In this document: one piece after another, positions 8,359 to 44,112 of the stretch
Layout: each line of letters begins with the position of its first letter
Position numbering within the stretch: the first letter of the stretch is position 1
Assembly (NCBI GenBank): GCA_003024175.1
Contig: MDYQ01000200.1
Span: forward strand, 1 to 50,596
Reading direction: 5' to 3'
Source: Planoprotostelium fungivorum
Taxonomy: Eukaryota > Evosea > Variosea > Cavosteliida > Cavosteliaceae
DNA length: 50,596 bases
Program-made: the position numbers and the translations under genes
The notes under the pieces: generated by a model
Database searches by the model: none
What the model saw: the letters and a program-made list of their open reading frames with translations, nothing else
Told to the model about the DNA's origin: nothing

Positions 8359-8639
8359 CTCCGCCGCTCTATCTGGCAGAGCAGCGTTGATCCCGTTGCG
8401 AAAGATGAGAGAGAGGTACTCTGTCCGTCTACAATGTGTAATCTTCCGCTGGGCTTACCCGCCGGCCGCAGACATACAATTTGCCGTTGACCCATCAGTA
8501 AACAATGACAAACAAGATTCATATCTGCAAGTGAAGAACCTAAACCAACTGAATCCTCTCTCGCAGGTGGCAATCATCATCGCGTGCGTTTCCATCGTTT
8601 GAGATGACGATAAAGAGGGATGTATACAATCGTTCAACT

Positions 8640-9948
8640 TTATAGATGATCGGGCAGGAATTCTGTCGATGACCAACGGTAATCATGTCCATACTTTGGT
8701 ATGCACCTCACTTTCTCTGGTGGTCCGATCCATTGGATCTCCTCACTGTCTTCTGGCTTGATGGAAGGATGCTGCCACTCTCTTCTCGCCGTGAGGTATT
8801 TGTCTTCAGCGTAGGCAACACCAACTGATGGAATGACTTGGACTCTTCCTCTACCGACCTTCCAATAGTCTATCCGAGTCATCAGTATTGGTTATGACGG
8901 ATGAGATGTATAGAGGATGGTGATGATGATGGACGACGATGGAGGGGGTCTCACCTTTGCATATTCGAGTGGATTCGGACTCTCTGCATTCTCCCTTGGT
9001 CGTGTTGGGATTTCGAAACTTGACATCTTTGACGAACGGTGAGGCGGCGAACACGAGCATGCCGTTCCAGCATGAATAGACTTGAATGGGTAGTCTCTGT
9101 TCGTACCTCCTCTGTGATGGTGGATGATATCCAAAGTGGGGCATGTTGTGTTCCCAAATCATGTTGCCGACCAGATCTCTCGCCACCCACGTGTCGTAGA
9201 ACTTTTTGGGATAATGAGGATGCCAATCGAAGGCGCACGTGATGTCGGCTGATTGCTTGATGTGTTGGTGTATGAGCTCTAAAAGATCGTCCACGCAGTA
9301 GTAGATGTCATTGAAGAAGAGGAGCATGTCGTATTGAACGGTGGTCTTCCAAAGAGGAGAGATGACGAGGTTTCTCAGCTCGACTAAGATGGGAATCCTC
9401 TGATCTGGATCCTTGCCCCAATCTGGTCCCTCTTTCGAGGCAGTCACAAAGATCTCAGAGTGGCTGATGTTCATGATCTTGGCGAGGGGCACTAAGACGT
9501 CTGTCAGGACTTGTCCGGTTTTGTCCTTCGATCCTGATTCGTGAACTGAGATACCAAAGCTCGTGTTGCGGTGAAGAAAGAGGACGAGGTCGCTGATGGC
9601 CTTGATCTGTGTGGGCAATAATGGTTCGGTATTGAAGGTATTGCCTCCTAACATGATGTTCATCCATCGCTCTCTCAGATATCCGTATCTCTTTACGATG
9701 GATGGATGGTCTAGACTGAGACACTCCATGATGTGAGGATCTTGCCCATATGCTTTTTTCAAGAGTGCTGATCTTTGTTCGATAACCATGTCCGTGTCTA
9801 ACTCTGGGTGTTTCGTGTTGGAAATGATAGGTGATCCTCTCGAGGACAGAAAGATCATTGTCAATGTGACCCAGCCGATCAAGATAGCGGCTGTTACATA
9901 CGTTCTGATTGATCGAGAGAGAAGGTATTGATACATCGCTCCCGTCAC
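8640..9948 (-). CDS. GT69 alpha-1,3-mannosyltransferase, CMT1/CAP59-like (copy 2)
   Basis: Paralogue of the gene next to it. A single N-terminal membrane anchor (YVTAAILIGWVTLTMIFL) is followed by a short stem and the GT69 catalytic domain: IMLGGNTFNTEPLLPTQI, HESGSKDKTG, DMLLFFNDIYYCVDDLLEL, ADITCAFDW, VYSCWNGMLVFAASPF, STRICKDYWKVGRGRVQV, ending in a conserved tail with a trailing WIGPPEKVRCIPKYG block. It has one intron, at the same place as in copy 1 (after the ICK codons), which supports duplication after intron gain. The start ATG at 9948 immediately precedes the anchor. The upstream 278 bases separate it from the next minus-strand gene and hold a TCTACAATTAAATTG element. Confidence 0.87.
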
Positions 9949-10226
9949 ATTCAGCTGCCGGTTTCTTCTGTTTCTGACCCACTAATATTCACAGAATATT
10001 GCATAGATCAGATCTGTCCCTGGATCTACAATTAAATTGCAACTACCAAGCGCGGTCACAGTCTGTTTAGAAGGCAACATCGTTCATCTGATGTGACACC
10101 ATCTCGTCCATCGTCCACAGAAACACGCTCGACAACATTTATCCGTTATTACTTCTCGTCTTGAGTGGTATCTCTGGTGAATAAGAGAAGAAGGAAGAGA
10201 TGGAAGTGCTCAAATTGGCCCTACCC

Positions 10227-13200
10227 TTAGACAGTAGAGGATTCACTCTGTCCATGGCGCTCGGCATCTGCATTCGAATGAGTGTGACCTTTTCATTTTA
10301 CGTCATCACCTCTACACCAGTGTAGACGCTTGGGTCTCCCGCGAACATGGCTTGAACGTGAGCCATACCGGCCTGCAGCGACGTCAGCATCTACACAGTT
10401 GTAGATGGAGGGTTCACCTTGTAGTCTCTGTTGCCGTCGACTGCTCTTCTGATCTTCGAACACAGTGGAGACCAACCGATGATGTGGTAGAATTGCATCA
10501 GCTCCTACATATAGATATCAGTCTCCATTTTCCCGCCAAATTCGGTTTCCCGCCAAAACACTCACCACGTACTGCTTCTGAGAGACGACATTAGACGAAG
10601 TGACCCTCTTGTAGATCATGTGCTGTCGTTGGAAATTGGCAGCTTCTCTCTCTGCGTAGAACTCGCAGATGTACTTGAGATCTTTCTCCATGGCCTTCTT
10701 CTCAGAATCCTTCATGATCTTCTTCGGAGATTTTCCGACGTTCTTCCGGCCGTCGATGTCGATCATGCAGAACAACTACGGTCGTGATGAGAAACTCGCA
10801 GGATGATCGTCATGAAGATGGACAGAGTTCGCTGATGACGAACATGGCGATCGATGATGATGTGATCGATGGCGATCGATGATGATGTGATCGATCGATG
10901 ATGATGTGATCGATCGATGATGATGTGATCGATCGATGATGATGTGATCAACTCGTAATTGACTGATCGTTAAGACCATCACTCACTTTGGTGAGTGTTC
11001 TGAGACCGTGAATGACGATCGGACCCGAATTATTGGGAGCGATGAGTTCTAAGAGGGAGGCCAGCTGCGAAGTGTGGTTCGTGCTCTTCTTCAGATGACT
11101 CAATACACCGTGATGGTAATGGATGAGATTGTAGATGCAACCCCACGCGTGTCGGTTGAACAGTTCATCTTTGTCATCACGACAGAAGGTGATGAGCCTG
11201 GAGCGGGGTCAGACATTTCCGAGAAATCTCATCGCGCGTAAGATGAAATCTCACTTGGGAATGAGGTCGGTGTCTTTCTTCAGTAGGTCCTGTGATTCCG
11301 GTGATTTGATAAACTGTTTCAGAGCATAGATCATGTCTGACCAACACGGTCAACGGATGATCATCTATAGACACTCACTCCTCTTGTCCACGTATAAATT
11401 GGCAATGTTGAGATCTGTCCTCTGTCCTTCTTTGATGAAGTTGACGATCTTTGTGATCTGTTTGGGAACGTCCAAGCCTTCCGGTTTTTTTGACTAAGGA
11501 GAGGGGTGAGAAAAATCTGGGAAAAGTTTCCCGCCCACCTTGACATCTCTGATTCGGGCGGACAGTTGCTGACACCTCGCCTTGGTCACGTGTGCCAACA
11601 CGTCTGTCATCAGAGTACTCCTCTGATTACGCTTCAGAACGTGCGTCTACAACGCTGTACTCACATCGTCCAATCGTGATGAATTGGCAGTGAGATGGTT
11701 GATCATGTCTTCTAAGATCTTGTCCTCATATAAAAAGTTCATTCCATCCTTCTATCTCGGTTCAGATCAAATAAAACCAAATAAAAGAATTGAGTTGATA
11801 TAAAAATCGATTTGAAAATGGATAACATTGATGAAAGTGAAAGCTACCGATGTGAATCGTATGATGATAAAGAGACATTTGATGTACATCCAACCGTGAT
11901 GTGGCATAAAGAGACACTCGATGTGTCACATTACCTTGTTCAGTGTGTCGATGACTAGATCTCTCGTCAGGTTCGCCTGCAGAGATGGTACCCAGATGTT
12001 CCCATCCTTGCGATCCGATTTCAATCCCTGCTCGCGTCATTTTTTTTCCACATCTGAACTCTTCACCTCTACAATGGACTCGGGTGTGTGTTTTGCCAGC
12101 ATCCAAACTCTCCAACTTCCAGAATGAAATTGGTCGAAAATCCTCTTGGTGACAAACTGTACACGTCAGCGGATTCCATCCGTCTACAACGTTGTAGACT
12201 CACTTGCACGTGAGAGAAACGATTTCTAACGGAGCATTTCTTGCAGAAGAGGCAAGAGAAGGAGTTGTAGAAGCCACACTCATCCGATCGCAGATATTCC
12301 GCTAGTGGTGCGTACGAGTCTTTCATGAGCTGGATGACGATGAAGAGAGACCAAGTGGAGAAATGCATGGACGACGTGGTGCAGGCGGACCAGATGACTC
12401 TGCGGATGAAATCGGGAAACTGCTGGAGGAGAGCGATGAGCGGTTGCGTGCAAACCTATGTGTCGTTACGATGAGATTTTCTCTTGTTATCTCACTCGAA
12501 TGGCGTTCTGGATGTTGGGTGGTAGAGATACGTAAGCGTAGGGTCTCTTACTGATGATGGAGAGAATGATACGCAGGTAATAGTAACACAAGATACGCTC
12601 TAAGATGTTTCTGTACTCCTTGCCGTATTTCTAAAAATAGATCACTACGGTGTTCGATGGTGATGTGTCACCTGGGTGAAATAGGTTATCTTGTCGTTGC
12701 AGTAAGGCATGATATCGTAAGAGACATCGTTGAAAAAGTTCATGGCTTGAGCCAGGTTACAGAGGCTGGAAGCATCTGAAGAGGGTCATCCAAACTGCGG
12801 TGGAGAGATGAACGGGGAGATGGACCACTTCACCTTGGGCGATGCTGTCGAGTAACAATTGGGACCGGTGAGATTGCAAGGCAAACGATACCAAGAGAGA
12901 AATCTGGAGGAAATTTCATCGTCTACAATGAGCATTTTCCCACCTTGGCTCGGACTTCCGGAGCTTTGCGTACGTTGTACAAGTGGAGAAACTCGACGAA
13001 ATTTCCCGGGTTGAAGTTGTTGACGATGTACTGATGATAAGTGGCCACTCCATTGCTGGGTACGATTCCCCTTGTCATCATCTCTTCAAATTTATCCAGG
13101 AACATTTTGCTGTGACGAAATCAGATCTACATCAATGTGATGTGATGTGCTGATTTGATGTAATATGGTGTGATGTGATGACATGTGATGTGATGACATG

Positions 13201-15693
13201 TGATGTGATGACATGTGATGTGATGACATGTGATGTGATGACATGTGATGTGATGACATGTGATGTGATGTCATGTGCTGATATTATGATATGGTGTGAT
13301 ATCATATGATTGGTAAACCCTAAATCCATGCCATCACCTCTGTACGAGTTGATCTAAAAAGTCGATATCGACCTCCAACTTTTCTTGTCCATCAAACATC
13401 CCCTCCAACTGCTCTGCCGCTTCACGTATAACCTGCCACACGTTCGACTCCAGTTCCAACTTCTTATCGAAATTTCACCTCCGGTGGCGTCTTTGGATGG
13501 TACCACGCCTCGAATTTGTGATGCGGCATCACTTGCAGCTGAAACATCTAAACTTTTACCCTCTCTCTCGTACCTCACCTGTCTAATTTTCGAATGGATG
13601 CTATCCCTCGTGCTCTTCACTCTCAGTTCTTTCAGTAGATTCGGCTTCTCTACATCGAAATCGTGTTGGTAAGCTTCGACGGGTTTTCCATAGATTTCGG
13701 TGGGTGCATCCATGCAGGACATCAAGGTGCGGCCGTTCAGATCCGTTCGGCCTGATGGGGTTGGCCGTTGTAGAACGATTTTGGGACTCACGCAGGGCCT
13801 TGTGTTGGCGGGAAATTTTGGGACCTTCGCCTTTGTCCTGAGAACGCTTGTACACGCCGTGGATGACGGGTAACAGTTGATGATCGACATTCCTGCGAAT
13901 TTTCAACGAGTTTTCACCGACTTTCCACCCACTCGATCGTGTACCTCGACACGTTACCCATGCTGGACACCCTAGGTAACCCCGCATTCACCCTCCTATT
14001 CCATTAGCCATCTACAACGAGACGATAAAATATCACTTGGTGAGCCTCTCAAAGGCGGGCATGATGGGAACGGCAGTCTTGAGCATCGGTGGAGTAGCAG
14101 ACATTCTTCTCGTACTTCTCGTCGAAATTTCACCGATCACACTGCGACCTCCCGGAATTTTTCTGGGAACGATGGGCTCCTGGGAACGTCAGGGAGACGT
14201 CACATCAGAGTTACGCACCGGTACGTACGAACGAATGAGGAGTGGATTGTGATTTCCTCTGACGACGACTTCTTCTTCACTCTCGGAAGTAGAGGACGCC
14301 GAATCTGTATCGATCGTCTGACAAAGTATCACGACCTCACTCGAAACATCTTCCATCGATTCACCTCGGTGTACTGTGTGATAGGAATGAGTTCTTTCAG
14401 CTGTGATGCGTGGGGAGGCACGACGGAAACTTCGCAGCAGATTCTCGCCCAATTCTGCATGGCGTACTCGTATTCTGAACGAGTGAGAAAATGCGTGATA
14501 AAAGTGGAATACCTTCGAAGGTGTTGTAGATGGATGGATCGGGCTCGGTTGGGAGGAGAGAAGAGTCCCAGGGAGGATGGGCCAAGTGGATCGTATTCAG
14601 TTCTTGTTCGTTGCTGTGGTGCGTGAGAATCGTGACGTGTCATTATTTTGATGAAGTCCACGTGTGATGTCTGTCACGATGTGATGGTGTGATATGATGT
14701 GATGAGATGTGATGTGATGTGATTTGATGTGAAGTTATGTGATGTGATGTGATTTGATGTGATTTGATGTGATTTGATGTGATTTGATGTGATGTCATGT
14801 GATGATGGAATGGTGCGATCAGCTGATCATCATGATCAGATCGTGAATGAATCACTCACTTTGCATTCTTGTCCAATAATTTCGACAAATTCTCCACCTA
14901 CTCCGATTTCAATCCCATTCACAAACGTACATTACGCACCGATATCTCGTCCTGAACGACACGGTTCTTCACTAGCTCCGTGGCCTGTTCGATCAATTTG
15001 GGATCAGGTCCCAAGTTCTTCTTCTTTGTCGATGCACCCAGACTTCTGCTGACGTTGTTGGTCGGGACAGAATTGGATTCGTTCTTCGGTTTGTCCTAAC
15101 GACATGTTTAGAAATGAATCATCAATGATAATGATGGACGATGGAATGACATCTCACCGTGATACGAGGACGGAAGTAATGTCTAGATGAGGCGCGAGGT
15201 AATTTGACTCGCTCCGAATTGAGTGTTTCTTCGGTTTGTGCACACCATTCTAGAAGGGCTCTCTCGTAATCAGTAAACTTTTCGAAACTCTCTGGGGAGG
15301 GAACGAAGAGAGCCGATCTCAAGTCTAAACCGTGCTCGGCGAACAAGAGATCTAATGATTCGTTGACCGATTCCGTCTTCTGAAGGATGAATGAGATCGG
15401 ATGTTGTGAAGGGGAGGTACGATACCTCTTTGACATCCGTAGGTAGAAAAGCTTGAGCTTCGGGGACATGGCAATAATACTGATCGTAGATGTAACCATC
15501 TGGTGAGATATGAGTTACTTTCGTCTTCGACAATGTCGGAGGAGAAAGCGGAGCCGGAATGTTGGGTGCTTCATACTGTCTTCCCTCTGATAACATCATC
15601 AGAGGAGCTAGTTCCGCATGATGTGAACTCACGAAGGGCTCTACAGAGTCTCGCCTTCTCATCGAAGGTTCGAGTCCGAGTCTTATGCGGCAT
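10227..15693 (-). CDS. Large uncharacterised helical protein
   Basis: I do not recognise the family. A chain of more than fifteen exons joins in phase from MPHKTRTRTFDEKARLCRAL at 15693 to a stop at 10227. The first third is basic and low in structure, with an acidic serine run (DSASSTSESEEEVVV). The remainder is rich in predicted helices, such as EQLEGMFDGQEKLEVDIDF, MFLDKFEEMMTRG, HAWGCIYNLIHYHHGVLSHL and DLKYICEFYAEREAANF, suggesting an alpha-solenoid (armadillo-like) scaffold. A cysteine cluster FSCLFCKKC lies near 12230. Introns hold the largest minisatellites in the window (10848-10949, 13171-13275, 14681-14806) and several TCTACA palindromes. An upstream ATG at 15818 in another frame is less likely. 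It could be two genes, but no internal stop plus promoter gap was seen. Confidence 0.5.
10312..10327. repeat. Palindrome spanning an exon-intron junction
   Basis: TCTACACCAGTGTAGA, two perfect 7-base arms around CA. On the minus strand the 5' splice site of the host gene (ACTG then GTGTAGAG) falls in the middle, so the hairpin would bury the donor site. Confidence 0.7.
10388..10407. repeat. Intronic palindrome, TCTACA family
   Basis: CATCTACACAGTTGTAGATG: perfect 8-base arms around CAGT, inside a 45-base intron of the large uncharacterised gene, nine bases from its 5' splice site. Confidence 0.8.
10848..10949. repeat. 19-bp minisatellite in an intron
   Basis: About five units of CGATGATGATGTGATCGAT in an intron of the large uncharacterised gene. 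Each unit is flanked by ATCGAT palindromes, so the array can fold into repeated short hairpins. Confidence 0.85.
12182..12199. repeat. Perfect 18-bp intronic palindrome, TCTACA family
   Basis: GTCTACAACGTTGTAGAC is its own reverse complement. It begins four bases into an intron of the large uncharacterised gene (minus strand GTGAG then TCTACAACG). Confidence 0.85.
13171..13275. repeat. 15-bp minisatellite in an intron
   Basis: Seven units of TGATGTGATGACATG (the last with GTCATG) inside a roughly 228-base intron, the longest in its gene. Open frames through it (MSSHH repeats) are a by-product. Confidence 0.9.
14681..14806. repeat. 10-bp minisatellite in an intron
   Basis: About twelve units in the register GATGTGATGT / GATTTGATGT, in an intron of the same gene. 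The GATTTGATGT variant occurs at least five times, the last four of them consecutive, indicating local expansion. Confidence 0.85.
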
Positions 15694-30528: not shown

Positions 30529-31651
30529 ATGTCCGCGAGAAAGCGACCCGCCTGTGCATCGTGTAGAGACAGTCACGTCACTTGCGAAGGGGGAGGTGGG
30601 GCGATGGACGCGGGTTCGACGGCTGACGATGGACAGAGAGACCCTGTCACCGATGCAAAGTGAGAGGATGGGAATGCGTCGAATCGGTCTCGAAGAGAAA
30701 ATGCAAGGCGCAGAGGATCTCTGGTTCGACCGATGTGAGTGGAAAGACTCTCACCACCACGCCTCCGAGGATCGCAGGTGACATTCCTCCTTAGCCATCC
30801 TCCCATCGTCTCAAACATTTACAGGTGAATATGGAGAGCTCAGGAAGGTCCCGAAATTGGAGATCAGCGAACCACCATCTCTGTGTGCCGTGTTGAAGAA
30901 GGACTTTGAGATCTACGTCGAGTATCTGAGGAGAGAGTGAGACGACCACCCCGCATGCAGTGCATTAACATTCCAAAGGGGAATCATCTTCGACACCAAC
31001 GTGAAGAGTAAACTTGATACCATAGATCAGAAGGTGATGGACTTGACTCGATGCATCCTGAACCCGCCAGATCGTCGAGATGAAACAATTCACGACACCA
31101 CAACAGAAGGAACAGCTTCTGTCCGATTTTACGAAACAATTGAGCGTGAGTTACCACCGCCTATATCTCTTCTCACATCATCACCAGATCGCCATCGAAG
31201 CCGCTCGCAATTGTCAAGTCCCTACCATCATCTCTGACCGCAGCGTTGTGGTGCATTACGTCAATGATGCGGCTGCATCTCTTCTCTCGTGGAGTCATCC
31301 TCTACCTTATCGCGATCGCGAAGCATGGCTTCACGTGAGCATCATCATCCATCTTCAATGTGTCGGAGAGATCTGACGCTGAAGACAGATCATGAGTCCA
31401 GAGATGCTCTCGTTTCTCATGGAGAATTCCATTCGAATTAATATGGAATGTATCGTAGACCGAACAGTCTATCACAGAGCCTCTTTTCGCAGTTTGGACT
31501 GCAAGGTGAACGAATTCAACTTGAAAGATGATGAGCTGACCTCACACAGGATAGAGTGTATCGGAAGTGCAATTATGCTATATCAACAAAGAGAGACTTG
31601 TTAGGATTGCCACAGTTGACCACCTTGCAATTGCTGCCAGATCCAGAATAG
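30529..31651 (+). CDS. Zn2Cys6 transcription factor with PAS domain
   Basis: DNA-binding regulator. After the first residues (MSARKRPACASCRDSHVTC) an intron of about 50 bases joins to RPCHRCKVRGWECVE, giving the binuclear zinc-cluster spacing C-x2-C-x6-C...C-x2-C-x6-C. A Ser/Thr linker, then a helical segment (VLKKDFEIYVEYLRRE), then a PAS-like region: VPTIISDRSVVVHYVNDAAASLL and ENSIRINMECIVDRTVYHR. The C-terminus, reached by one more intron, is KDRVYRKCNYAISTKRDLLG and ends at 31651. Zinc cluster followed by a single PAS domain is the layout of the fungal gluconeogenesis regulators ERT1/AcuK/RDS2; similarity of function is inference. An ATG at 30490 could add 13 residues. Zn2Cys6 factors occur in fungi and some amoebae. 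Confidence 0.8.
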
Positions 31652-31877
31652 ACCATCTGCTCTCATGCGATGCCGTTTAAAGTCTCCGCTTAGATGGAAA
31701 CGTGTGAAATCTCGGAGGATTGAGATCGAATAGAGAGGATGTATATGTAAAGAAATGTACTTTGATGAATCGATGTCAATGACGATTAGTGATTCACAGT
31801 TTTAATAATACACAACAACCTTTCATCACAAATGACAGGATATATTTCACTTCAACAGCTCACCTCTAGTTCCCTCG

Positions 31878-33268
31878 ATGAGCTCGATGGCAAGATTATT
31901 GATCTTGGCCCGTCAAACTCGGATCTTCTACATCACTGATCTCTCATCCTTCCCTGTCCTCACATACGTCGCTACGATTCGTCAGCTCTTTGTGGCTGCC
32001 ATCAGTCCCGCGAGTGTTGTTTCCAAATACAGCTCTGAGCGTGATCTGCCACCTTATCCACCCTTCATGTCGGTGTTGTATCTGAGATTGCTGCGCTTTG
32101 GTGGGAGAGTGATCTGAGATCTGTCAGAAACCACCAACACAGATCCTGAGCGCACCTTCCGCACAACCGACAGAAGCAGAGAAGCAACAGAAGATGAAGT
32201 ACCCGGAGGACATCACGGTTTCGGGAGAGATGATAGAGCTGCAGAGAAGGCAGCTACCCTTCAAGCGAAAGGAACTGAGTAGAACTTTAGAAGAGACCAT
32301 CAGGAAGTTAGACACACTGCGAGGTAACAAGCAATCGCAAGAAGCGGGAGCTCGAAAGGCGTTGAGAGCGAAATCAGCAAGTGAGTGCCGAGAAAATGTG
32401 GTTCCATTCTGAAATGGACGAAGGCCTCCAAGCGATGATCGAGTTAGTGGACGCTATTTATATGAATTTGGGTGTGGACGGCAACGAGCAGTTGAGATGT
32501 GAGTTTGTGTTGATCCGGTTCAGCCTCTGAAGTAACACAGGTGAAATCGCAGCCATCATCCTCTGGTATTGTCACTGCGTTTTAACGGCAGATGACGATC
32601 AATTCGTTCCCTTCTGCAGGAGGTACAGGATCGCAACCGGGAAGACAGGTAATGCACCTCACCATCGTGTTTGTCTACCTCTTTCTCACTCTCTCAAGGT
32701 CTCTTCTGTCAAGCTAAGAGCGTGGACCAATATTACAGAAACATGTGGATCTCGGGTGCGTTAGCTCTGACGTACGTTGGTATCTTAGCCTTCCCTCTCT
32801 ATGCCCCTCTTGCTTTCCCACATTCCATCGCTTGGATTTCTCATCAATTTAGAAAGATCGTGAGCCCATCGAATGCATTATCGTCAACTCATTCTCAACA
32901 GCACATGGACTTTCGAGTGGACAATCGAACCGAATCCGACGAAGTGGGCTACTTTAGGAATCTGCAGAAGTTGAAGGATTCCATGATGGAGATCGACATG
33001 CCAGATCCAACGGCAGCAGTAGACGTTCGAGCTTTGAGAGCTTCCCTCTCCGAGGTAATCATCTTCATCCAACTCCATCTTCATCATCTGATCGAACTTC
33101 CAGGCTATGTATCTTCCTCCCATCGTCATCACGAACCAAGTCATTGCGGAGAATGACATGGCAACGCCACGAAACAGGAAGTCTTTCCACGTCTCACCAC
33201 GAGCAGAGCGGCTGTCTCAGAGAGTGGATCAGATCTACGCCAATAAGCGTGCCAGTCTGATGGTGTAA
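31878..33268 (+). CDS. Uncharacterised protein
   Basis: Not recognised. Exons join in phase from about 32150 onward: KMKYPEDITVSGEMIELQ, RTLEETIRKLDTLRG, LQAMIELVDAIYMNLGVDG, AAIILWYCHCVLTADDD, a hydrophobic stretch ALALTYVGILAFPLYAPLAF, and a Ser/Arg-rich C-terminus ending RVDQIYANKRASLMV at 33268. Possibly cytosolic with one membrane-associated helix. The first exon (from 31878, MSSMARLLILARQTRIFY) connects in phase by a 37-base intron but is less certain than the rest. AATAAA appears at about 33312, 44 bases after the stop, as a likely poly(A) signal. Confidence 0.5.
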
Positions 33269-33539
33269 ACGATGCACAGATGTAACATATAGAGTCCGTA
33301 ATAATTTTCGAAATAAACGCGTTGAGATTGAGGTTTTAACTCATGTGACGCGCATCAGAGAAGAGAAGGACACAAGGTCTATCAAAACGGAGGAGAAGTC
33401 ATCGCATGAAAGCGTGAGGCATCGGAATCTCGTGGGTTGGTCAGTTTCAAGAGCTTCACAGAAGACTACTCCCTTTAATTACATAAATACGCACGATCAC
33501 AACAACGTCTAAGACACATCGGCTGCCCATACGAATCAG

Positions 33540-36500
33540 ATGGTGTTTCAAGGAGAATCCGGCAAGGTGGGGAGATGGTGTGGTTGCGTCTGATGTATAT
33601 AGCCCATCAGCTGGTCAGCACCTCAAGCAGGTCTGAGGAAGGTCGTTGGTGTTAGCTATCTCATACAACGAAAGGTGATCACGCGGACAACTGTGCATCT
33701 CTGACACAACATCAGCTGGCCAGTCGGAGAGTTCGAAAACAGTTGCGAATTCCAATCGATGATGAAAAAGATGTAAGATGTCTATATGTTGTCACTGCTA
33801 ACCTCTCAGCAAACCAGAAGAGAAGAAGTAGAATCCATGAAGGACTGCCTCCTCTTTTCTCGGGATAATCAATCAGAGGTGATATCGTCACCGTATCATT
33901 GCACCCATCTTCTATAGATTCCAGAAGGTGGAAGTCTCTATCGACTGTTGGAGTACATCATCTCCACTCGTCAACCTCTTCGATCCCAACTGATCGAAGC
34001 CATTTGGATTTCAATCAGACCTCTCGTCGGTTGTGAAGAGCTTTTCTCTCAATTAACGCAGATATACGAAGACGTAGAGAGCGAAGCCACCATAGGCAAT
34101 GAACTCACAGAAGACATCACGCGAAACAGAGAACAGTCTCAGGTGGATCATCTTGATACGATCATCGCGATGATTCGTTGTTGACCCATCGACACAGAGG
34201 GTCATATCAGAGATGATCCATCAGTGGTGCACAAGGTTTCCCGATGATTGGCAAAGACATCCGCCCATGACCCACTCTCTATCTCTCTTCATAGAGAGTA
34301 ACACGAGAGACAACTATCCACCCAGCTCAACTCTGAGGCGTGCCTTGTCCCATGCATCCGCGGCGACACCATCACCGGTGAGTCGAAGACACGAGATCTC
34401 ATCTCATCATCATGTTCTATAGACATTCCAAGAGATAAATTACAAGTCGAGAGACAGTTTAGAACTAGTCCGATACCCTCCCATCTCCATCGCCCATCAG
34501 ATGACCCTGATGGAGTCGTCCATCATGTCTTACATCTCTCCTCAAGAGTGAGAATCGCACTCGCGTTCGCACAATTGAGTTTCCGTCAGGTTCCTCTTGT
34601 ACCTATGGAAACAGCAAGACGCAGTGAACGTGAATCGAATGAAATTATGGAATGAATCAACGAGAGGCTGGGTGTCAAAGTGCATGAGAGCTTATCCCAA
34701 CGGCAGCGACATCGTCGATTACATGTACAACCTGGCGTCGGTACGTACGGTACGTATTCACGTTGATGATGGTGGTAGGAGCTGTACAAGATTGGGAATA
34801 TCAATGGAATGAAGAGTGTACTGCTGGGGTGCTCAGACGTCTTGGGACAATCGATGCCTCAGAAAGTGACTTTAAAACATTTAAAATGTATTTTATTCAC
34901 GACGTGACAGATGGTGCAACCGCTACAGTGTACCGATGGAAATCGAAACGAGGCTTTAGCGTTTCAAATTCCATATCTTTCGGACTTGCTGGAGAGACTG
35001 AAAGACTCTGACGACTCTTTGTTAGATTACATTCACGAGGGCGTCATCAACTTTGCAAAGTGTGTCAGCGAGACGAAACTGATCGCAGGGTGGGTGATCG
35101 TGTCATCATCGCGATCGAGTGATGGAGGACAGGTTCATGAGTGGGATGAACTGTGGGGGAGACAATGGCATCTACAATCGGATCGTCAGAGATGCAAACA
35201 TCATGGAGGTGATGATCCGTGTCATGATGACGATGATCACGATCTTGGCATCTGACAACATCTAGTTACTCTCCAATCGTCAACCTTGTATTAGTCCTGA
35301 AGAAGCGATGAAACTCCACAGAAAACTCGACATCGTATCTCCCAAGAGCCACGTCAACGTAAACCGCCCGGGAGGTGCGCGAGTTCTCATCGAAATTTCT
35401 CTCACACGTCCAGTTCAAGAGACCGCAGACGAGAATAACGTGATCCTCCTGCACAAACAATTGAGCCACAAGCTGAAACCACACCACCTGCAACTCCTCT
35501 ATTCCATCGGAGAACAAGTACAATACAAGGCGGGAAACAGAATTTTGAGACAGAACGGTCCCAATTCTCACTTCTTCATCATACTGGACGGCACCGTACA
35601 CATGACAAAAGTATGACGTCTCGACTGACCACCGGCCGTACACTCATGATATCTCAGGGTCACGATGGAGGCGAATACCAAGTGTGGGATTTAGGTAGAG
35701 GTCACTTCTTCGGTGACAACAGTTTGTTCGATGGAGGAAATTTGGGACTCATCCACTCTGTCTACGTTTCCGAGTGCGGAGACGCAAAATTGATTCGAAT
35801 CGAGCGGGAAAGATTATTGGGACTCATGAGGGAAGATCCGCTGCTGTCGATCGAGCTGCTGAGGTGTATGATCGAGTCGTTCTCTTGGCAGGTGAGAGAT
35901 TTCGATTTACGTACGTAACGATGCGCACAGTTGTTCTCCCTACCTCCACCTTCCCAACGGATCGGTACCGAATTTCAGAGTGAAACTTCGACAAGATCTC
36001 ACGGTAAAGAACAGAGAAGGGAAGAGAAGAGTGAGACGATAACTTCTACTCGTTTCGCTGAGACGTTCAGGTGAATCGGAGCTAAGTCCACGAGATTGGG
36101 AAGAATTGAGACGTAGGTGTAATACGCAGACGTACGAGAAGGGTGAACACGTCATCCAGTCGTACCACGGTGATCGCAAGTTCTACCTCCTCCTCACAGG
36201 TGCAAACGAAATCCAATCGAAATTTCGTGACTCCCGGGAACAGGTCGATGTCAGTACCATCTACACGCAGACGATAACCATCACGAGATTGGGGAGAGGG
36301 AGTTGATGGGTGTGTACAGTTTCTTCCACAACAAACCCACTCGATTCTCCATCACAGCACTCACCCAATGTGATGTCTTATCTTTCGACGCCCTCACCCT
36401 TCGTGACATCGCATCGATCGACCCCGGAGTGAGTGAAATCTCGCGGAATTTTCGATGACCTGGGACAGATGGTGTCTAGGCTGTACATGTACGTCGCCAG

Positions 36501-39500
36501 GGTGATGGCCGTCCGATGGAGGGCGAGGAATCAGCAGACTTGGGAGCAGACGAGATCTTCAACGAAGGAGATGCAGATCTCCCCAGATCTACTCATAGAT
36601 GATCACACGAGCTATCCACCAGAGAAGAAGGGAAGATTAGCGGAACGGTCGCGAACTTCAACTCTCATTCACACGAAGTGGAACGAGAGGTGAGGGGGAG
36701 AGTTGTAGATGGATGATGACGTCATCAGGTTCTGTGAGGTCAGGGGAGGGTTTTTGATCATCTACAACGATCCAGAAGGAAGATTGGCGAGAGACAAGGC
36801 ACTTTCTTGGAAAAGTCACACGAAGCCCATGAAGGTCGTGTGCCTATCACGTGAGAGGACTTGATGTCGTACGTCTCACCGAGACATCTCAGGTTATCGT
36901 CTGGTCGGTTGTAGAACGTCAGATCGTCTCATCATCAAATTGATTTCACCTCACGGCATCATCGCTCTCTCTTGTGACATAGTCATCGAGGTAAAGTCCA
37001 CTACCATTCATCTCACCTCAATCAAATCGTGACATCCATCTCATCCCAATCAAGGTGGTGGGGTGGATCGGCACGATGCACCACTGGACGAACCTACAGA
37101 ATCGATTTCAATCGTTCGCGCCGGTTCGTCACAAGATTGCAGTGGAATCATTTGTGGATGCAGAAGGTGAGAACTTTGATGTAGAGAGAATACTGATGTA
37201 GAGAGAATATTCACCATCACACAGATACGTTCAAATCCATCGCAAAAGATCTCGCGAGAGCTCAACGTTTCATCTTCATCGTCGATTGGTGGTTGTGTCC
37301 GGAATTGTACTTGAAGAGAGGAGAAGATGCCACGGTGAACGATCGATTGGATGTCATACTGGAGAAGAAGGCAAACGAGGGTGTCAAGGTGTTGGGAGAT
37401 CTCTTCTTCTCTTCATCTCTGACAAATTCAGGTCTTCGTGTTGGTGTGGAACGACACAGACATCGCCAGCAACCTCTCTTCCCTCCACACGAAGAAGAAA
37501 TTAGAAGCCCTCAGGTAAGATATCATCACGACACAGGAGAACTTCCACCATCTGATGCATTGTAGTGAAAACATCGAAGTCATTCGACATCCAGCCATCA
37601 TTCCATTCGAATGGTCGCACCATCAGAAGAATGTCGTCATCGATCACACTGTCGCTTACGTCGGTGGATTGGATCTGTGCTTCGGCAGATACGATACGAA
37701 TCGACACGAATGTGTGGACGATTGTCACGTGAACAGGTGAGAGTGAGGTATAGAGGTGGTGGTGATGTGAATAGTGTGTGGCCGGGGAAGGATTATGCGA
37801 ATACGAATCGAAGGGGAATTGTAGATCCAGAGATTCCATTTGACGTGAGCATGATCGCATCATCACATCATCACATGACCATCGCACGACCATATCATCA
37901 TCATCACAACATCGTCATCACAACATCACAACATCATCACATCATCTGTTCACGATCATATTTCATCTCATAAATCCATCTTCTGACATCATGACCTCGA
38001 CACATCTCACCCTCCAACAGGAAGAAGTAGATCGTAAGTCTATTCCCAGAATGGGTTGGCACGATGTACACATGAGAGTGACGGGTCAAGCGGCTCTCGA
38101 CGTCTCACTCAACTTTATTCAAGTGCGTCTTCCTCTTCTTCTGAATGTCTGACCACGACAGAGGTGGAATCACCATCAAGAGTCTCTGTTGAGTCACACT
38201 CACATTGTTCCGTGGAAAATGAGCCGTTCCGAGGAAGAGACGAATCGTGGTACGGCCGATGTACAGTTGGTGAGGTCACTTCCCATCTGGGCGGGAGGAA
38301 ATGTCGACGAAAAGTGAGAGAAATCTCGCGGAGAATTCGAGTTCACCCCAGCAGCTCGGTCGTCACAGCTTACATCGATCTCATCGAAAGAGCCGAACAT
38401 TACGTCTACATAGAGAATCAATACTTTATCTCTTCCACTGCCAACGATAAGGTGAAGAACCAAATCGCACAAGTCATGGTAGAGAGGATCTCCAGGGCCT
38501 ACGAGGAGAAGAAAAAGTGAGAGAGAAAGAGAAGAATTGTACGTTGACAAGGAGTAGGTTCAGAATCATCGTTGTCATGCCGCTGGCGCCTGATGGAGGC
38601 TTCATCCATCGCAATTCCATTCGTTACATCATGACATTGTGAGTTTCACGTCTTCACTTCATCGTTCTCGATGTGTACATCGCGTCGATTCGTCGAATGC
38701 ACGAGAATCAAATCGTGATCTGACACCGAATCAGACAGTTCAACACGATGTGGAGCGGTGAGACGTCCATCTACAATCAATTAGAGAAGAGGCATCCACA
38801 GATAAGAGTGGAGGACTATATCACTTTTCACGGCCTAAGGACTTACGGAAGAATGGTGAAGGGTTACGTGACCGAACAGATCTACGTCCACGCCAAGGTG
38901 AGACATCCATCACGCACTCATCCATCATGGAATGACATCTCATCAGTTGATGATCGCCGACGACTGTCGCGTCATCATGGGATCGGCAAACATCAACGAC
39001 AGAAGGTGACCATCATATCTCCCTTTTATTTCATTTTAAATCTTTTACAGTCTGCACGAGGGAAGAGACAGCGAGATCGCCGCCGTGGTGGAAGACAAGA
39101 GAGTAGAAGAGATCACAATGAACGGAAGACCTTTCGCAGCGGCACACTTTGCAGCTGATTTAAGAAGAAGGATCTGGGCGGAACATTTGGGATTAGAAGA
39201 CAAGATGGACTCGTTGGTGGATCCCATGTCTGATTCTACGCTGTCTCTGTGGCATGGAATATCGAATCGTAACACGAAGATCTTCGAGAAGGTGAGCCGT
39301 CCACCATCAGATTGGAAGATCGTGATGTGATGATTGACGATGGGATGGCAGGTGTTTCCCTTTGTCGCTTCGAATCAGATCACGACGATGGAACAACTGA
39401 GAGAACTGATGGACGGAGAAGAGTACGTCTTACACAACGCCGAACTGCTGAGTGAGGTCAGCGGACACCTCGTCGACTTTCCCATGGGCTTTCTTTCCAA

Positions 39501-39573
39501 GGCCGGCGCAGACATGCTACCCAAGTTTAAGATATTTGAGAAGGTCCAACAGTTCAATCGAGTCTTCCAATAA
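33540..39573 (+). CDS. RasGEF-cNB-cNB-PH-phospholipase D fusion protein
   Basis: About 1,520 residues from roughly 29 exons whose junctions I followed in phase without a stop. Order (approximate residues): REM/RasGEF-N (75-170; RLLEYIISTRQPLRSQLIEA, RVISEMIHQWCTRFPDDW); RasGEF catalytic (225-430; IAHQMTLMESSIMSYISPQE, ELYKIGNINGMKSVL, INFAKCVSETKLIAG); cNMP-binding-like domain 1 (480-610; NSHFFIILDGTVHM, FFGDNSLFD); domain 2 (670-760; KGEHVIQSY, LTQCDVLSFDA); PH-like (830-960; WNERFCEVRGGFLIIYNDP, VVGWIGTMHHW); PLD (960-1450; FIVDWWLCPELYLKRG, first HKD HHQKNVVIDH, GGLDLCFGRYD, ENQYFISS, second HKD VHAKLMIADD, GSANINDRS). Expected roles: Ras/Rap activation and hydrolysis of phosphatidylcholine to phosphatidic acid at membranes. 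No PX domain was seen. The start at 33540 is the least certain part. If RNA shows a break it would be near 36440-36475, between the second cNB and PH parts. Confidence 0.75.
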
Positions 39574-39584
39574 ATGTATTTATT
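39569..39584. terminator. Palindromic two-way poly(A) signal between convergent genes
   Basis: AATAAATGTATTTATT reads AATAAA on both strands. It overlaps the stop codon of the RasGEF-PLD gene (+) and lies 12 bases beyond the stop of the phosphoglycerate mutase gene (-), whose stop codons are only 22 bases apart. Function as a shared poly(A) signal is inferred from sequence and position. Confidence 0.55.
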
Positions 39585-39595
39585 GTCGTTTCCTC

Positions 39596-40510
39596 TTACT
39601 CCTTCTTCTTTCCTTGGTTGGCCACTGCACTCTGTGCGGCCTTGACCGTCTCTTCATCGGCGAGGTAGTAGCTCTTCTTCACGGGCTTGAGAGTCTCGGC
39701 ATCTAACTCGTAGATGAGAGGGATGCCGGTGGGGACATTGAGCTCGACGATGTCGTCATCGCTGACGTTGTCCAAGTATTTGATGAGAGCTCTCAGACTG
39801 TTGCCGTGAGCGGCGATGAGCACCTTCTTTCCACTCCTATCGAGGGTGAGTCGAATGCAGATGATGGGTATGACGGCCATACTTGATCTGAGGGACGATC
39901 TCGTTGTGCCATGCGGGTAAGAATCTATCGACAGTGTCCTTAAGACATTCGGTCTTGGGAAGATCAGCTGGGTTCAAATGCTTGTATCTGGGATCGTTTC
40001 CGGGGTAGTATTGGTTGGATTCGTCCAGAGCGGGAGGGGGGATGGCGTAGGCTCTTCTCCATACCTTGACTTGATCCTCTCCATGCTTAGCGGCAGTCTC
40101 TGCCTTGTCTAATCCCTGTTCTTGATGTCAGAAGTTTGTGCTGTGAAAGATTGCATATCTGACCTGAAGGGCACCATACATGCGCTCGTTCAATCTCCAG
40201 TTGGGATAGACGGGAATGTACATGAGGTTCATCTCTTCCAAGGCGAGCCAGAGGGTCTTGATGGCTCTGGACAGCATCGAAGTGTAGGCGACATCGAATG
40301 TGAAGCCGTTCTCCTTCAACTGCTTTCCTGCGAATTTGGCCTCAGTGAGACCCTGATGCAGTCAGTCGATCGATCTGCAGCGATGGTGGAGATGGATGAT
40401 AGATCCATTACCTTCTCAGACAGAGGAACATCGGCCCAACCAGTGAACCTGTTCTCCTTGTTCCAGCTTGACTCTCCGTGACGCAGTAAGACGACCTTGA
40501 CTGTAGACAT
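39596..40510 (-). CDS. GPM1/PGAM: Phosphoglycerate mutase, 2,3-BPG-dependent type
   Basis: Glycolytic enzyme interconverting 3- and 2-phosphoglycerate. N-terminal [20 protein letters not shown] holds the phosphorylated His; then [48 protein letters not shown] with the catalytic Glu region, and [19 protein letters not shown] with the second catalytic His. The tail [19 protein letters not shown] and a Lys-rich end follow. Three or four introns, GT-AG, in phase. Length (about 250 residues) is typical. Convergent with the PLD gene with almost no spacer. Confidence 0.95.
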
Positions 40511-40748
40511 TATTATTCTTTCGTGTGATGCTGACGGTGATGCTTTCTCCACAAACAACGCCAGTCGAAAATAAAATCATTTTCACTCTCATTTCGCACC
40601 GTCACAATCTTTATCGAAAGCTTGCTACAAGATGTACTCTGGTAAGACGACGGAGAACTGAGAACAAATCAGTCAAATGTAACGCAGCAACATGTAACAA
40701 AGGTACAACTATGACCTATACCGCTCATGAAATAAAAATAGGCTTTTA

Positions 40749-41756
40749 TCATGCTTCAGACATGTTGGGCTGCAATTTTGTGACTTCAGTGCTGTGATCG
40801 GCCAGTTCTCTCAGTGTTCTCGCAGGATGAACGATGTTGAAGACTCCCTGAGCGATGACCATCATCAAACCGTCTAGAATGACAAAGTAAGATTCTGTGG
40901 ATATGATGGGTCCGTTCCATCCTTCAGATAGTTCGATCACTCGGTACACTCCTCTGACGTAGAGGGCGATGGAGCTGATGATGACAGGTACTGCGATACG
41001 CTTCAGATCCCTCTTCTATTTTTCTATGTCAGAAGATGTGGCGATAAGATGGGCATCACCTGCTGAGGCGATGAATCACAGGCTCCCGCCTTCATAGCTG
41101 CCAGTAATTTGATGGAAAAGTCCACGGCGAAGATGACAAACAGCGTCATGCTGACCAATTGAAAGACGATGCCTCCCAGCATGATGCGCGCTCCCAGATC
41201 GGCTCCTTCGAGGTCGATTGCCGTGGCAGCCATACCACCACCGATGGCTTGGACCACCAGCGCGATCACGTCGCACGTGATGAACACGATGCTGTATAAT
41301 TTGGGCCTCAGTCTCGAATATTCTGGGTTCGTGAGGCTCATCCTGCATCACATCGTCAGATACGGTGAAGGTGATTCATCCTCGAGCAAACTCACACTTT
41401 GCCCAACATGAGGTAGATGGCAGCTGAATAGAAGACGGGGGCGATGACTAACACAGCAATCTGGCACAAGAATCCATTGCCGTTGGTAGGCTCGTAAGCG
41501 TTATAGAGTCTAGCACCCCAGCCGATGCATTCGCCTTCGTCACATCGTCATTCATCGTCATCTGTGGGAGAAACTCACCTATGCCTCCGATCGTCAACAC
41601 GTGCAGCCACCATCCTCTATAGTAACTGACTTGCACCAAGTGAGCCAAAGTGGAGATGCCAAACAGTGCGACGAAGACGATGCCGATCCAGGCGTGGGGT
41701 ATGTAGTGGTAAGGTGAACCGAGTTGGGAGGGATCCAGTACGCTAGTTGTGTTCAT
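40749..41756 (-). CDS. RTA1-like seven-transmembrane protein
   Basis: Membrane protein of the RTA1 family, known in fungi for resistance to lipid-active compounds (yeast RTA1, RSB1 for sphingoid bases). Spliced chain: YIPHAWIGIVFVALFGISTL, LHVLTIGGIGE, CQIAVLVIAPVFYSAAIYLM, LGKV, LYSIVFITCDVIALVVQAIG with GGGMAA next (the family's conserved cytoplasmic-face QxxGGG block), IMLGGIVFQLVSMTLFVIFA, the IALYVRGVYRVIEL motif (family R-x-x-[FY]R-x-x-E) and ESYFVILDGLMMVIAQGVFN (D-x-x-x-M). All hallmark residues are present, seven helices can be drawn, and the C-terminal tail is short. The substrate is not predictable. Confidence 0.9.
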
Positions 41757-42098
41757 GTCGTCTGTCGATTAGATGTTGGTTCAGAGTATGAAGACATACC
41801 ACACGAAACCTCCCAAGTATCCGATACTCTTTTTCTGAACCGACGACATTCCGCGAAACCCGAGGTTACCTCGGTCGGTTTCATAGAATAAAATTATTTT
41901 GATTTCTTTTTTTTGGTATTGCACTAGAGAGGAGATATTTTCTCTGTAGGAAGGGTTCTATGAAATGACTTAGGCGTAGTCTGAAACATCTAGCGAGTGA
42001 AGTGAGGCAGGAAGAGTGAAACGAGGTGCGTTGCAGTTGATGATTGGATGACGACAACGTGTGATGATGAAGCAGTGGCGCGAGCTATACATTTTATT
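41757..42098. promoter_or_regulatory. Upstream region of the RTA1-like gene, with inverted repeat
   Basis: 342 non-coding bases. A 10-base inverted repeat, TTTCATAGAA at 41879-41888 and TTCTATGAAA at 41956-41965, brackets an AT-rich core with a run of nine T. It could form a long-stem hairpin or be a very small non-autonomous element. No duplicated flank was evident. Confidence 0.4.
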
Positions 42099-43693
42099 TA
42101 CATGCGAGCGTAATCGGAGGCCCAGCTGGAGAGGATACCATTGACGTAAGATACCACGTTCTCTGACCCAATGTCGGCCTCTTCCGTCCTTGCCTCCGCC
42201 ATTTGGAAGTGTGTGTTCTGTTCTCTCTTCAGTCTCGTGTCTGATCACTCGGTGTGATGTTGATGATGCAGAGTCCGACATGTGACGGATGTGATGATGT
42301 GACGAATGTGATGATGTGACGAATGTGAGGATGTGACGATGTGATGATGTGATGACTTCGTCTGTACTCACGATTCGATCGAACGACTCGGTCAACTTCT
42401 TATTCACCGAATCCACTTCCTGCAGCAATTTCGGCCACTCCATGCAATCCGGTCCCATCAGCTTCTCAGACTCGGTGCTAACGTTCTCTGAATGTCTATA
42501 TTCCACCATGCATAATCCTTTGATCTCTTCTAACCACATCACTCTGCGTCTCAATTTCTTGTTATTTGGTAGATCTACGTAGTGATACTTTTTCTTCAGA
42601 TCGGTCGCTGTTGAATGTCAACGTCACGTGACTTCTCATCGAAATTTCACCCGTGCTGACTACGCCCCGACTGGATCTCCACGAATAGCCGTCGCTGTTA
42701 CCTGATGGTAAGAAAGCTGGCAGAATGAGTCACGTGATCATCCATCTACAACTCACCCTCTCCCTGGTAAGCGTAACAGTACACGTTCTGCGTGTCTTCG
42801 AGAAATTTCGCTGGAATCTGTCAGTTTTGATCACGTGATCAACTCACCTGGTAGGATCCTCCTGCAAGGAGAGGCGTGCCTGGGATTCTGACTTACGTAT
42901 CTGAGACAGTTCTCCAGCACTTCGTCCCACGCGTTTCTCTTCCAAACGTGTTTCCCTGACAACAAAGTCGTTGTAGATGGAGAAGGACCGAACGGCTTCT
43001 TCTTCAGTTCGTACAAGATGGCCAGGCAGAGATTGATTCCGGGGACGATCTGATGCATGATCATCAATCAGAACACCACCATCGATCGTCTTCGATCATC
43101 ACTGATGATCGAGGACAGCATCATCATTTATCATCACCTCTCTCATGGCCAAAAAGAACGAAGTTGTGGGAAATTGTTTCAGGTGGAGGGAGAATGTGGA
43201 CATCTTTGTGAATGGGTTCATGTTCGCATAGAAAGAATCAGTGATGATGTTGCTGTCCTCCGCAGGTGTGCCCAATTCATCTTTACCTCAACGATCAGGT
43301 GGAGTTGATCGACATCGACATGACGATGCACACCTGATGGTATTCCTCTCAACTCCCGTGGATGAGCCACGTTGAATATACGAGCGACATTTGAATTGGC
43401 TGTGAGAATGCGATGGACACCTCTTCGTGGATACTGTCCGGCTCATCAGAAGATGAGAAGATGAAGGTTGACCCACATCAACCATGGTGATGCTGAGTTG
43501 ATTCATGCCCAAGAGTTTGCAGATGATGTCCTCTTCCACGACATCGATTAGACTCGTCACTTCGTTAGGAAGATCTTTCTAACGTTCAATAGAGTCTTCT
43601 TTGTTCTTCGCATCTCACTCTGCAAGTATGCCACTTGGGGTGAACCTCTTCCTCTTCTCTTCTTTGCCGTGACGACAACAGCTGGTTGGTCAT
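42099..43693 (-). CDS. Uncharacterised protein
   Basis: About 390 residues from eight or so exons joined in phase, from MTNQLLSSRQRREEEEVHPK at 43693 to SWASDYARM and the stop at 42099. Blocks: KDLPNEVTSLIDVVEEDII, YPRRGVHRILTANSNVARIF, MSTFSLHLKQFPTTSFFLAM, IVPGINLCLAILYELKKKPF, KHVWKRNAWDEVLENCLRY, NVYCYAYQGEGNSDGYSW and RRRVMWLEEIKGLCMVEYRH. The last two are faintly like parts of the CG-1 DNA-binding domain (CYYAHGE; RRSYWML..LVHYR), not enough for a name. No membrane segment. AATAAA overlaps the stop codon region. One intron (about 42220-42370) contains a (GATGTGACGAAT)-like array. Confidence 0.5.
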
Positions 43694-43899
43694 TTGCTAT
43701 CGTCTTTCGGTATCTGTTGCTTTCAGCGCTGAGATGGATGGTTCTCAATCACTTAATATGAATGTGGTGCCCTGAGATCTGAATCTCTTCCTTTCGGTTC
43801 TGTTCACTCTTACACACTTGTTCGATCGTTTTCCAAAAAGACAGTGCCACACCAGTGCATCTACACGATCGATTACCATCTATGATAACATCACTCTTC

Positions 43900-44112
43900 T
43901 CACCCCGGATCACCCGTCGGACTGATCAAGTCAGATAGCATGGTCTTTGCGATATCGTCGGCCATGAGGACATAAGGATTTCCCTCCACCGGCACTCCCA
44001 CAATCATCGTTGCCGTTTCGTCTTCATCTTTGATGTGGATGTCCGGTGTCACAAGAGAGCACAGAGCTCGAGCGGTGTCGATATCGGTCTTCCTCCTCTT
44101 CAGCATCACCAA
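43900..44112 (-). CDS. Possible coding exon, unknown
   Basis: An open stretch translating to about 70 residues (LVMLKRRKTDIDTARALC, then an acidic run and GNPYVLMADDIAKTMLSDLI) ending in a stop at 43900. Composition looks protein-like and a CTATGCTCAG acceptor precedes it at about 44130, but no upstream exon with a start codon could be joined. It may be the last exon of a short gene or a remnant. Confidence 0.3.
   Translation of the reverse strand: MVMLKRRKTDIDTARALCSLVTPDIHIKDEDETATMIVGVPVEGNPYVLMADDIAKTMLSDLISPTGDPG

What the first reader, a model, noticed from the sequence alone, without database searches (positions are those of the whole stretch)
33540..39573. One reading path joins RasGEF, two cNMP-binding-like domains, PH and phospholipase D
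Seen: every exon from the RasGEF-N region to the second HKD motif connects through short GT-AG introns in one phase. The only candidate break (36440-36475) has a canonical 43-base intron and room for neither a 3' UTR nor a promoter. Known: Dictyostelium GbpC and GbpD combine RasGEF with cNB domains, and eukaryotic PLDs carry PX-PH or C2 upstream of the two HKD halves. A RasGEF-cNB-PLD chain is not an architecture I know of. Inference: a single protein could couple a cyclic-nucleotide or other allosteric input to Ras/Rap activation and local phosphatidic acid production, for example in chemotaxis or macropinocytosis.
Basis: partly seen in the sequence, partly recalled or inferred. Interest (0 to 1): 0.88.

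Follow-up and report, generated by a model that had tools for sequence, protein, structure and literature searches.

The report
RasGEF fused to phospholipase D
One gene of an unnamed, probably fungus-like microbe appears to encode a single protein that both switches on a Ras-type signalling protein and makes the signalling lipid phosphatidic acid, two jobs that usually belong to separate proteins.

Summary
Confirmed in its main point. A 31-exon plus-strand model ending at 39573 (30 of 30 introns GT-AG, 37-176 nt) reads as one open chain of about 1,450 residues: RasGEF_N, RasGEF, two cNMP-binding-fold domains, a possible PH domain and a complete PLD1/2-type phospholipase D with both HKD motifs. 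The intron at the suspected break is 40 nt (36429-36468), not 43. A two-gene reading leaves only 10 or 15 nt between genes, and each bridging intron joins what look like two parts of one domain, though those alignments are weak. One polypeptide is likely, not proven: no cDNA or relative could be consulted. Interpretation weakens in three ways. Neither cNB keeps the arginine that holds the cyclic-nucleotide phosphate, so ordinary cAMP/cGMP control is unlikely. The PH call rests on one weak match (E 0.3). Neighbours (RTA1, CAP59-type, DUF1765) suggest a fungus or relative, not an amoeba. Best reading: a GbpD-like exchange factor joined to PH-PLD, coupling local phosphatidic acid to Ras/Rap activation. 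New variant of a known kind.

The parts
33540..33917 (+). 5' end of the gene, start codon unresolved (ATG 33406, 33540, 33575, 33593 or 33837 possible); exons 1-3 of the model at 33639-33674, 33716-33772, 33810-33878
   Evidence: 31 open candidate paths from the first four ATGs; ATG 33837 located; codon score not supportive for exons 1-3
33927..34281 (+). RasGEF_N domain (exons 4-5)
   Evidence: Pfam PF00618 29.7 bits vs cut-off 28.3 when scanned alone; 25.3 in the whole protein
34489..35063 (+). RasGEF (Cdc25) domain, exons 6-9, probably continuing into exons 10-11
   Evidence: Pfam PF00617 43.3 bits over profile 2-180 of 181; 47.5 bits in two stretches when alone; SOS2 8uf2 E 2e-5 over the first half only
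35518..35837 (+). first cNMP-binding-fold domain (exons 11-12); phosphate-binding cassette without arginine
   Evidence: Pfam PF00027 47.7 bits; alignments to 4ev0 and 4z07
36127..36413 (+). second cNMP-binding-fold domain, beta roll (exons 14-15)
   Evidence: Pfam PF00027 40.9 bits; alignments to 3of1 and 2pqq
36429..36468 (+). intron 15, 40 nt, at the suspected break; joins IASIDPG to MVSRLYMYVARV (helix C of cNB2)
   Evidence: the 2pqq alignment runs 12 residues past the junction
36469..36522 (+). helix-C-like start of exon 16
   Evidence: 8 of the 25 listed chains align past the junction, E 0.0022 to 0.092; the Pfam profile ends before it
36661..37087 (+). possible PH domain (exons 16-19), directly before the PLD core
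   Evidence: only 2cof, E 0.3, spanning the 36689/36729 junction; no Pfam or NCBIfam match
36690..36728 (+). intron 16, 39 nt, second possible break (stop 36691-36693, ATG 36709); joins TLIHTKWNER to FCEVRGGFLIIY
37097..39522 (+). phospholipase D catalytic core, PLD1/2 type (exons 19-31)
   Evidence: 405 bits, E 5e-120 over 564 query residues to solved phospholipase D1 6u8z
37612..37689 (+). first HKD motif, WSHHQKNVVIDHTVAYVGGLDLCFGR
   Evidence: Pfam PLDc best stretch; alignment
38889..39005 (+). second HKD motif, HAKLMIADDCRVIMGSANINDR, split by intron 38898-38946
39569..39574 (+). AATAAA overlapping the TAA stop (39571-39573)
   Evidence: the only other AATAAA on this strand in 33000-40000 is 33312

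Best explanation
One gene encodes one protein: RasGEF_N-RasGEF-cNB-cNB-(PH)-PLD. Shown: the open spliced path, the RasGEF, cNB and PLD matches and both HKD motifs. Likely: each place where the chain could be cut lies inside what looks like a domain. Inferred: the tandem cNB domains act as a built-in regulatory lid on the exchange domain, as in GbpD or Epac, but answer to something other than an ordinary cyclic nucleotide (another small ligand, a partner protein, or membrane contact), or only give structure; the PH-like segment and PLD hold the protein on the membrane; PLD makes phosphatidic acid there, which keeps the exchange factor next to its Ras- or Rap-type substrate. PA production and Ras/Rap activation would thus happen at one spot, a built-in version of the PLD2-PA-Sos link reported in mammalian cells. 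I put about 0.85 on one polypeptide, 0.8 on an active PLD, 0.6 on an active exchange factor, 0.4 on the PA-retention step.
For: 30 of 30 introns GT-AG and mostly short. In-frame codon score is the best of the three frames in 25 of 31 exons, including exons 14-19 around both candidate breaks. Pfam above cut-off for RasGEF, cNB twice, PLDc and PLDc_2, and for RasGEF_N when alone. PLD core 405 bits to 6u8z with both HKD motifs. The junction at 36428/36469 lies inside the cNB2-2pqq alignment and the one at 36689/36729 inside the 2cof PH alignment. Gaps of 10 and 15 nt for a two-gene reading. 0 of 60 shuffles give any gene. PLD2-made PA coupling to Sos: a reference title and passages on the SOS PH domain and PA in PMC3762125 (passages only).
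Against: No transcript and no relative: nothing confirmed in viral contigs or genome contigs, and no collection of eukaryote genomes was available. My gene finder gives 95.4 for one gene and 81.1 for the best two-gene parse, but the 14.3 gap is almost wholly its 14-point charge for a second gene, so codon signal alone does not decide. The same finder also joined this gene to its upstream neighbour and PGAM to an RTA1 gene, so its joins are cheap. Lack of AATAAA inside the gene is uninformative: 33 in the window on both strands predict about 2 in 7 kb of one strand, 2 are seen, and only 4 of 13 predicted gene ends have one. The domain-splitting alignments are weak (E 0.0022 and 0.3); the best cNB2 matches stop before the junction, and Pfam scores cNB2 slightly higher without the residues after it (41.8 vs 40.9). 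In-frame codon score is not best in exons 1, 2, 3, 5, 13 and 23. The RasGEF second half departs from consensus (read by eye).
Confidence: 0.72

Rival explanations
1. Two tightly packed genes: a GbpD-like RasGEF-cNB-cNB gene ending at 36693 and a PH-PLD gene starting at ATG 36709.
For: Stop at 36691-36693 in the exon-16 frame if intron 16 is not spliced; ATG 36709 opens MDDDVIRFCEVRGG in the PLD frame (frames); the best two-gene parse starts its second gene at 36709 (its first gene ends at 36602).
Against: Only 15 nt between them; GTGAGG...CATCAG is of the usual type here; the PH hallmark KWNER-FCEVRGGFLIIY would be cut (weak). The same-strand boundary just upstream has 271 nt if the gene starts at ATG 33540 (stop ends 33268).
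Confidence: 0.08
2. Two genes from one polycistronic or trans-spliced transcript, the second starting at AG|ATG 36469.
For: ATG stands directly after a 3' splice-site-like CAG at 36466-36468; ATG 33540 is also preceded by CAG.
Against: Of 12 predicted gene starts printed, 1 has CAG|ATG (49784, minus) and 1 more GAG|ATG (17478); GTGAGT at 36429 is a good cis donor in frame; the cNB2 alignment continues across (weak).
Confidence: 0.04
3. One gene whose intron 15 or 16 is sometimes retained, giving a short RasGEF-cNB form beside the long form.
For: Both introns bring a stop when retained.
Against: 23 of 30 introns of the gene do so, so this is not special.
Confidence: 0.15
4. The RasGEF half is no longer catalytic and serves only as a Ras-binding or structural part of a membrane-anchored PLD.
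For: SOS alignments cover only the first half of the domain; apparent deletion and insertion in the second half (by eye); cNB cassettes degenerate.
Against: Pfam RasGEF covers profile 2-180 of 181; INFAK near the catalytic hairpin is kept (by eye, consensus recalled).
Confidence: 0.3

Closest known systems
[quoted passage not shown]
   Same: RasGEF_N and RasGEF first, cNMP-binding domains after them, unlike Epac (PMC1273635, passages)
   Different: GbpC/D carry a GRAM domain (between two cNBs per PMC11988041, passages; PMC1273635 counts three cNMP domains in RasGEFU) and no PLD is described; here no GRAM match, a PH-like segment and a full PLD follow; host looks fungal
PLD1/PLD2 and fungal Spo14-type PX-PH-PLD (PX-PH layout recalled)
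   Same: catalytic core, two HKD motifs, a PH-like segment just before the core
   Different: no PX match; RasGEF and two cNBs take its place; C-terminus does not end in the EVWT of mammalian PLD (recalled)
Epac and PDZ-GEF
   Same: cNB and RasGEF in one chain; PDZ-GEF also lacks the cassette arginine (PMC2246266, passages)
   Different: cNB lies before the RasGEF there (for Epac and PDZ-GEF order); no PLD
PLD2-PA-Sos coupling and PLD2 with GEF activity
   Same: functional link of PLD and small-GTPase exchange (PMC3762125, passages; PMC12743522, listing)
   Different: separate proteins (Sos) or GEF activity of PLD2 itself; no RasGEF domain fused to PLD

Membership tests
PLD1/2-type phospholipase D | two HKD motifs in a core aligning over its length | tested here: met
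   405 bits, query 93-656 to chain 8-588 of 6u8z; PLDc two stretches
PLD1/2-type phospholipase D | PX domain before PH | tested here: not met
   no PX match in the whole protein or in the 180-residue piece from the break through PH
PLD1/2-type phospholipase D | PH domain before the core | tested here: inconclusive
   2cof E 0.3; no Pfam match or NCBIfam match
RasGEF | RasGEF_N plus Cdc25 domain above curated cut-off | tested here: met
   29.7 and 47.5 bits when scanned as pieces; RasGEF_N under its cut-off in the whole protein
RasGEF | exchange activity on a Ras or Rap | not testable with these tools
   needs protein
cAMP/cGMP-binding cNB | phosphate-binding cassette FGE[LIV]AL..[PV]R | tested here: not met
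   cNB1 FFGDNSLFDGGNLGLIHSVYV has no R; cNB2 LMGVYSFFHNKPTRFSITA has V for E and T at the R position, R one later (motif)
GbpC/GbpD family | RasGEF followed by two cNBs | tested here: met
GbpC/GbpD family | GRAM domain | tested here: not met
   no GRAM match in the whole protein at E up to 10; 61 residues lie between the two cNB stretches (570 to 632)
GbpC/GbpD family | groups with GbpC/D in a RasGEF tree | not tested
   no eukaryote protein collection available

The most novel reading that the evidence does not exclude
A two-enzyme signalling protein of a fungus-side lineage in which a cNB pair that no longer reads cyclic nucleotides gates both a Ras/Rap exchange domain and a phospholipase D, giving a self-contained positive-feedback switch: PA holds the exchange factor on the membrane while the activated GTPase raises PLD output.
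Probability: 0.25. Interest if true: 0.8.

Novelty: new variant of a known kind. Interest (0 to 1): 0.6.

Why it matters
If the protein is real, natural fusion of a RasGEF to PLD would be strong evidence that PA production and Ras/Rap exchange can work as one step, a link so far argued from separate mammalian proteins. One purified protein would let that coupling be measured, and it would show a GbpD-like layout outside the amoebae where it was described.

Tried and rejected
Whole-genome search: none held. Relatives by PLD or RasGEF peptides and by an exact 30-mer: nothing confirmed. PH by Pfam and NCBIfam: nothing. One-versus-two-gene scoring by codon use: undecided once the gene-start charge is removed (cut points every 5 nt from 36300 to 36720). 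AATAAA as gene-end marker: only 4 of 13 predicted ends have it, and the count inside the gene is what chance predicts. Several automatic splices were replaced by hand, guided by homology; for example 36227-36270 became 36200-36243 because that restores the cNB2 strand FYLLLTGRCQYHL, so the final model is not independent of the families it matches. A sub-cut-off Pfam match to Polysacc_lyase over the RasGEF_N region (16.7 bits in the whole protein, 21.1 alone, cut-off 29.9) was set aside as chance.

Papers: searches listed no title or abstract opening that describes a RasGEF-cNB-PLD chain; one search returned nothing. I saw passages of six papers, otherwise listings only. The library lacks most subscription journals, so this is not proof of absence.
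Full report
What is there. I read 32500-40800 and its three plus-strand frames, took unambiguous coding stretches as a first codon table, ran a simple splice-aware gene finder, and then fixed each junction by hand using frame and homology. The result is 31 exons from 33639 to the TAA at 39573, 1,458 residues without an internal stop, with 30 introns, all GT-AG, lengths 37-176, median about 44, 26 of 30 at 60 nt or less. Fourteen of 30 donors are GTGAG. Intron phases 0/1/2 number 17/4/9. The 5' end is open: 31 candidate first-exon paths from ATGs at 33406, 33540, 33575 and 33593, or ATG 33837 within exon 3.

Is it more than chance? With a codon table from 6,884 codons predicted outside the gene, the finder gives the region 95.4 and one gene, 34501-39573; 60 of 60 dinucleotide shuffles give no gene. 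The prediction of those outside codons was seeded with this gene's exons, a mild circularity. Left-out codon scores favour the model frame in 25 of 31 exons (stops in the other frames not charged); exceptions are 1, 2, 3, 5, 13 and 23. The whole-window run fused this gene with the upstream one and PGAM with an RTA1 gene, so the finder merges too readily and I do not lean on its joins.

Domains. Pfam on the whole protein: cNMP_binding 78.1 bits in two stretches, PLDc 55.7 in two, PLDc_2 51.9 in two, RasGEF 43.3 over nearly the whole profile, RasGEF_N 25.3, under its cut-off of 28.3. As pieces: RasGEF_N 29.7, RasGEF 47.5 (two stretches), cNB1 47.7, cNB2 40.9. Among solved structures the N-terminal half finds SOS2/SOS1 and many cNB proteins; the C-terminal half finds phospholipase D1 6u8z with 405 bits over 564 residues and phospholipase D2 6ohm with 370 bits. 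Both HKD motifs are intact. The PH segment has one match, 2cof at E 0.3, whose aligned stretch is the first strand pair, with W and R kept; that this is a PH hallmark and that 2cof is a PH domain are recalled. Pfam and NCBIfam give none. The segment lies directly before the PLD core, as PH does in PLD1/2 (layout recalled). I call it plausible, not shown.

One gene or two. There are two places to cut. At a second, reading stops at TGA 36691-36693 and ATG 36709 opens the PLD frame. Gaps of 10 and 15 nt leave no room for UTRs and a promoter, although convergent genes here come as near as 22 nt (39573/39596). The intron at each place has ordinary signals and length, and each joins what look like two parts of a domain: the cNB2 alignment to 2pqq runs 12 residues past 36428/36469 (E 0.0022), and 8 of the 25 chains listed align past it, all Crp/Fnr-type and none better than E 0.0022; the best match, 3of1, stops before it. 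The 2cof alignment crosses 36689/36729 (E 0.3). Of five in-frame open ways to join exon 15 to exon 16, all from donor 36429, one enters at 36469 and four enter deeper and drop helix C (donors 36381-36460, acceptors before 36560). AATAAA on this strand between 33000 and 40000 occurs only at 33312, 44 nt after the upstream stop, and at 39569, overlapping the stop; but that number is what chance predicts and only 4 of 13 predicted ends in the window have one. Scores of one versus two genes do not decide. I judge one gene at about 0.85.

Regulation. The canonical cassette is FGE[LIV]AL[LIMV]x[PV]R (PMC2246266, passages). cNB1 has FGD and no arginine; cNB2 has G-V for G-E and threonine at the arginine's place. 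PDZ-GEF lacks the arginine too, and that paper called the meaning there unclear. So the cNB pair is unlikely to read cAMP or cGMP in the usual way, and 'cyclic-nucleotide input' should be dropped or left open to other ligands.

Comparison. GbpD (RasGEFU) has its cNMP domains after the RasGEF, unlike Epac (PMC1273635, passages, which counts three); a review puts a GRAM domain between two cNBs and says GbpD acts on Rap1 (PMC11988041, passages); Physarum has GbpC/D homologues (PMC4758236, passages). The first half of this protein has that order without a GRAM match. The second half is PH-like plus PLD without PX. Searches listed no paper that joins the two. A 2007 survey does mention cNB domains fused to phospholipases, kind not stated in the passages seen. 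The functional link has precedent: a review lists PLD2-made PA coupling EGFR to Sos and says the SOS PH domain answers to PIP2 or PA (PMC3762125, passages); PLD2 with GEF activity appears in a listing (PMC12743522).

Host. Neighbours include RTA1 (218 bits), a CAP59-type mannosyltransferase (183 bits; a second, similar copy beside it was read by eye, not scanned), SPX-EXS, Lipase_3, and DUF1765 (26.5 bits, cut-off 25). [quoted passage not shown] that CAP59 and DUF1765 are mainly fungal is recalled. A fungus or near relative is therefore likelier than an amoeba; nothing narrower can be said, and no tree was built.

Mechanism. Shown: sequence and domains. Inferred: cNB lid over the exchange domain, membrane anchoring, PA-based retention and local Ras/Rap activation. 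Rivals and tests are given in their sections.

Noticed in passing
39569-39584: AATAAATGTATTTATT: a near-palindrome holding AATAAA for both strands at the 22-nt gap between the PLD gene and the convergent phosphoglycerate mutase gene, overlapping the PLD stop codon.
   Followed up: partly
4914-14086 (minus): My gene finder merges several genes here: two CAP59-type mannosyltransferases in tandem (one scanned by Pfam; the other by eye), and a stretch matching the GREB1 circularly permuted SF2 helicase model (48.6 bits).
   Followed up: partly
30653-33268: Upstream stretch with no Pfam match in two versions of its model; the finder joined it to the RasGEF gene by a weak donor, which I did not accept but cannot exclude.
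   Followed up: partly
34866-35208: RasGEF second half looks shortened in the middle and has about 25 extra residues (FMSGMNCGGDNGIYNRIVRDANIME) near the catalytic hairpin, judged by eye.
   Followed up: no
39596-44106 (minus): Region merged by the finder that holds phosphoglycerate mutase and an RTA1-like membrane protein, 218 bits; a clue to a fungal host.
   Followed up: partly
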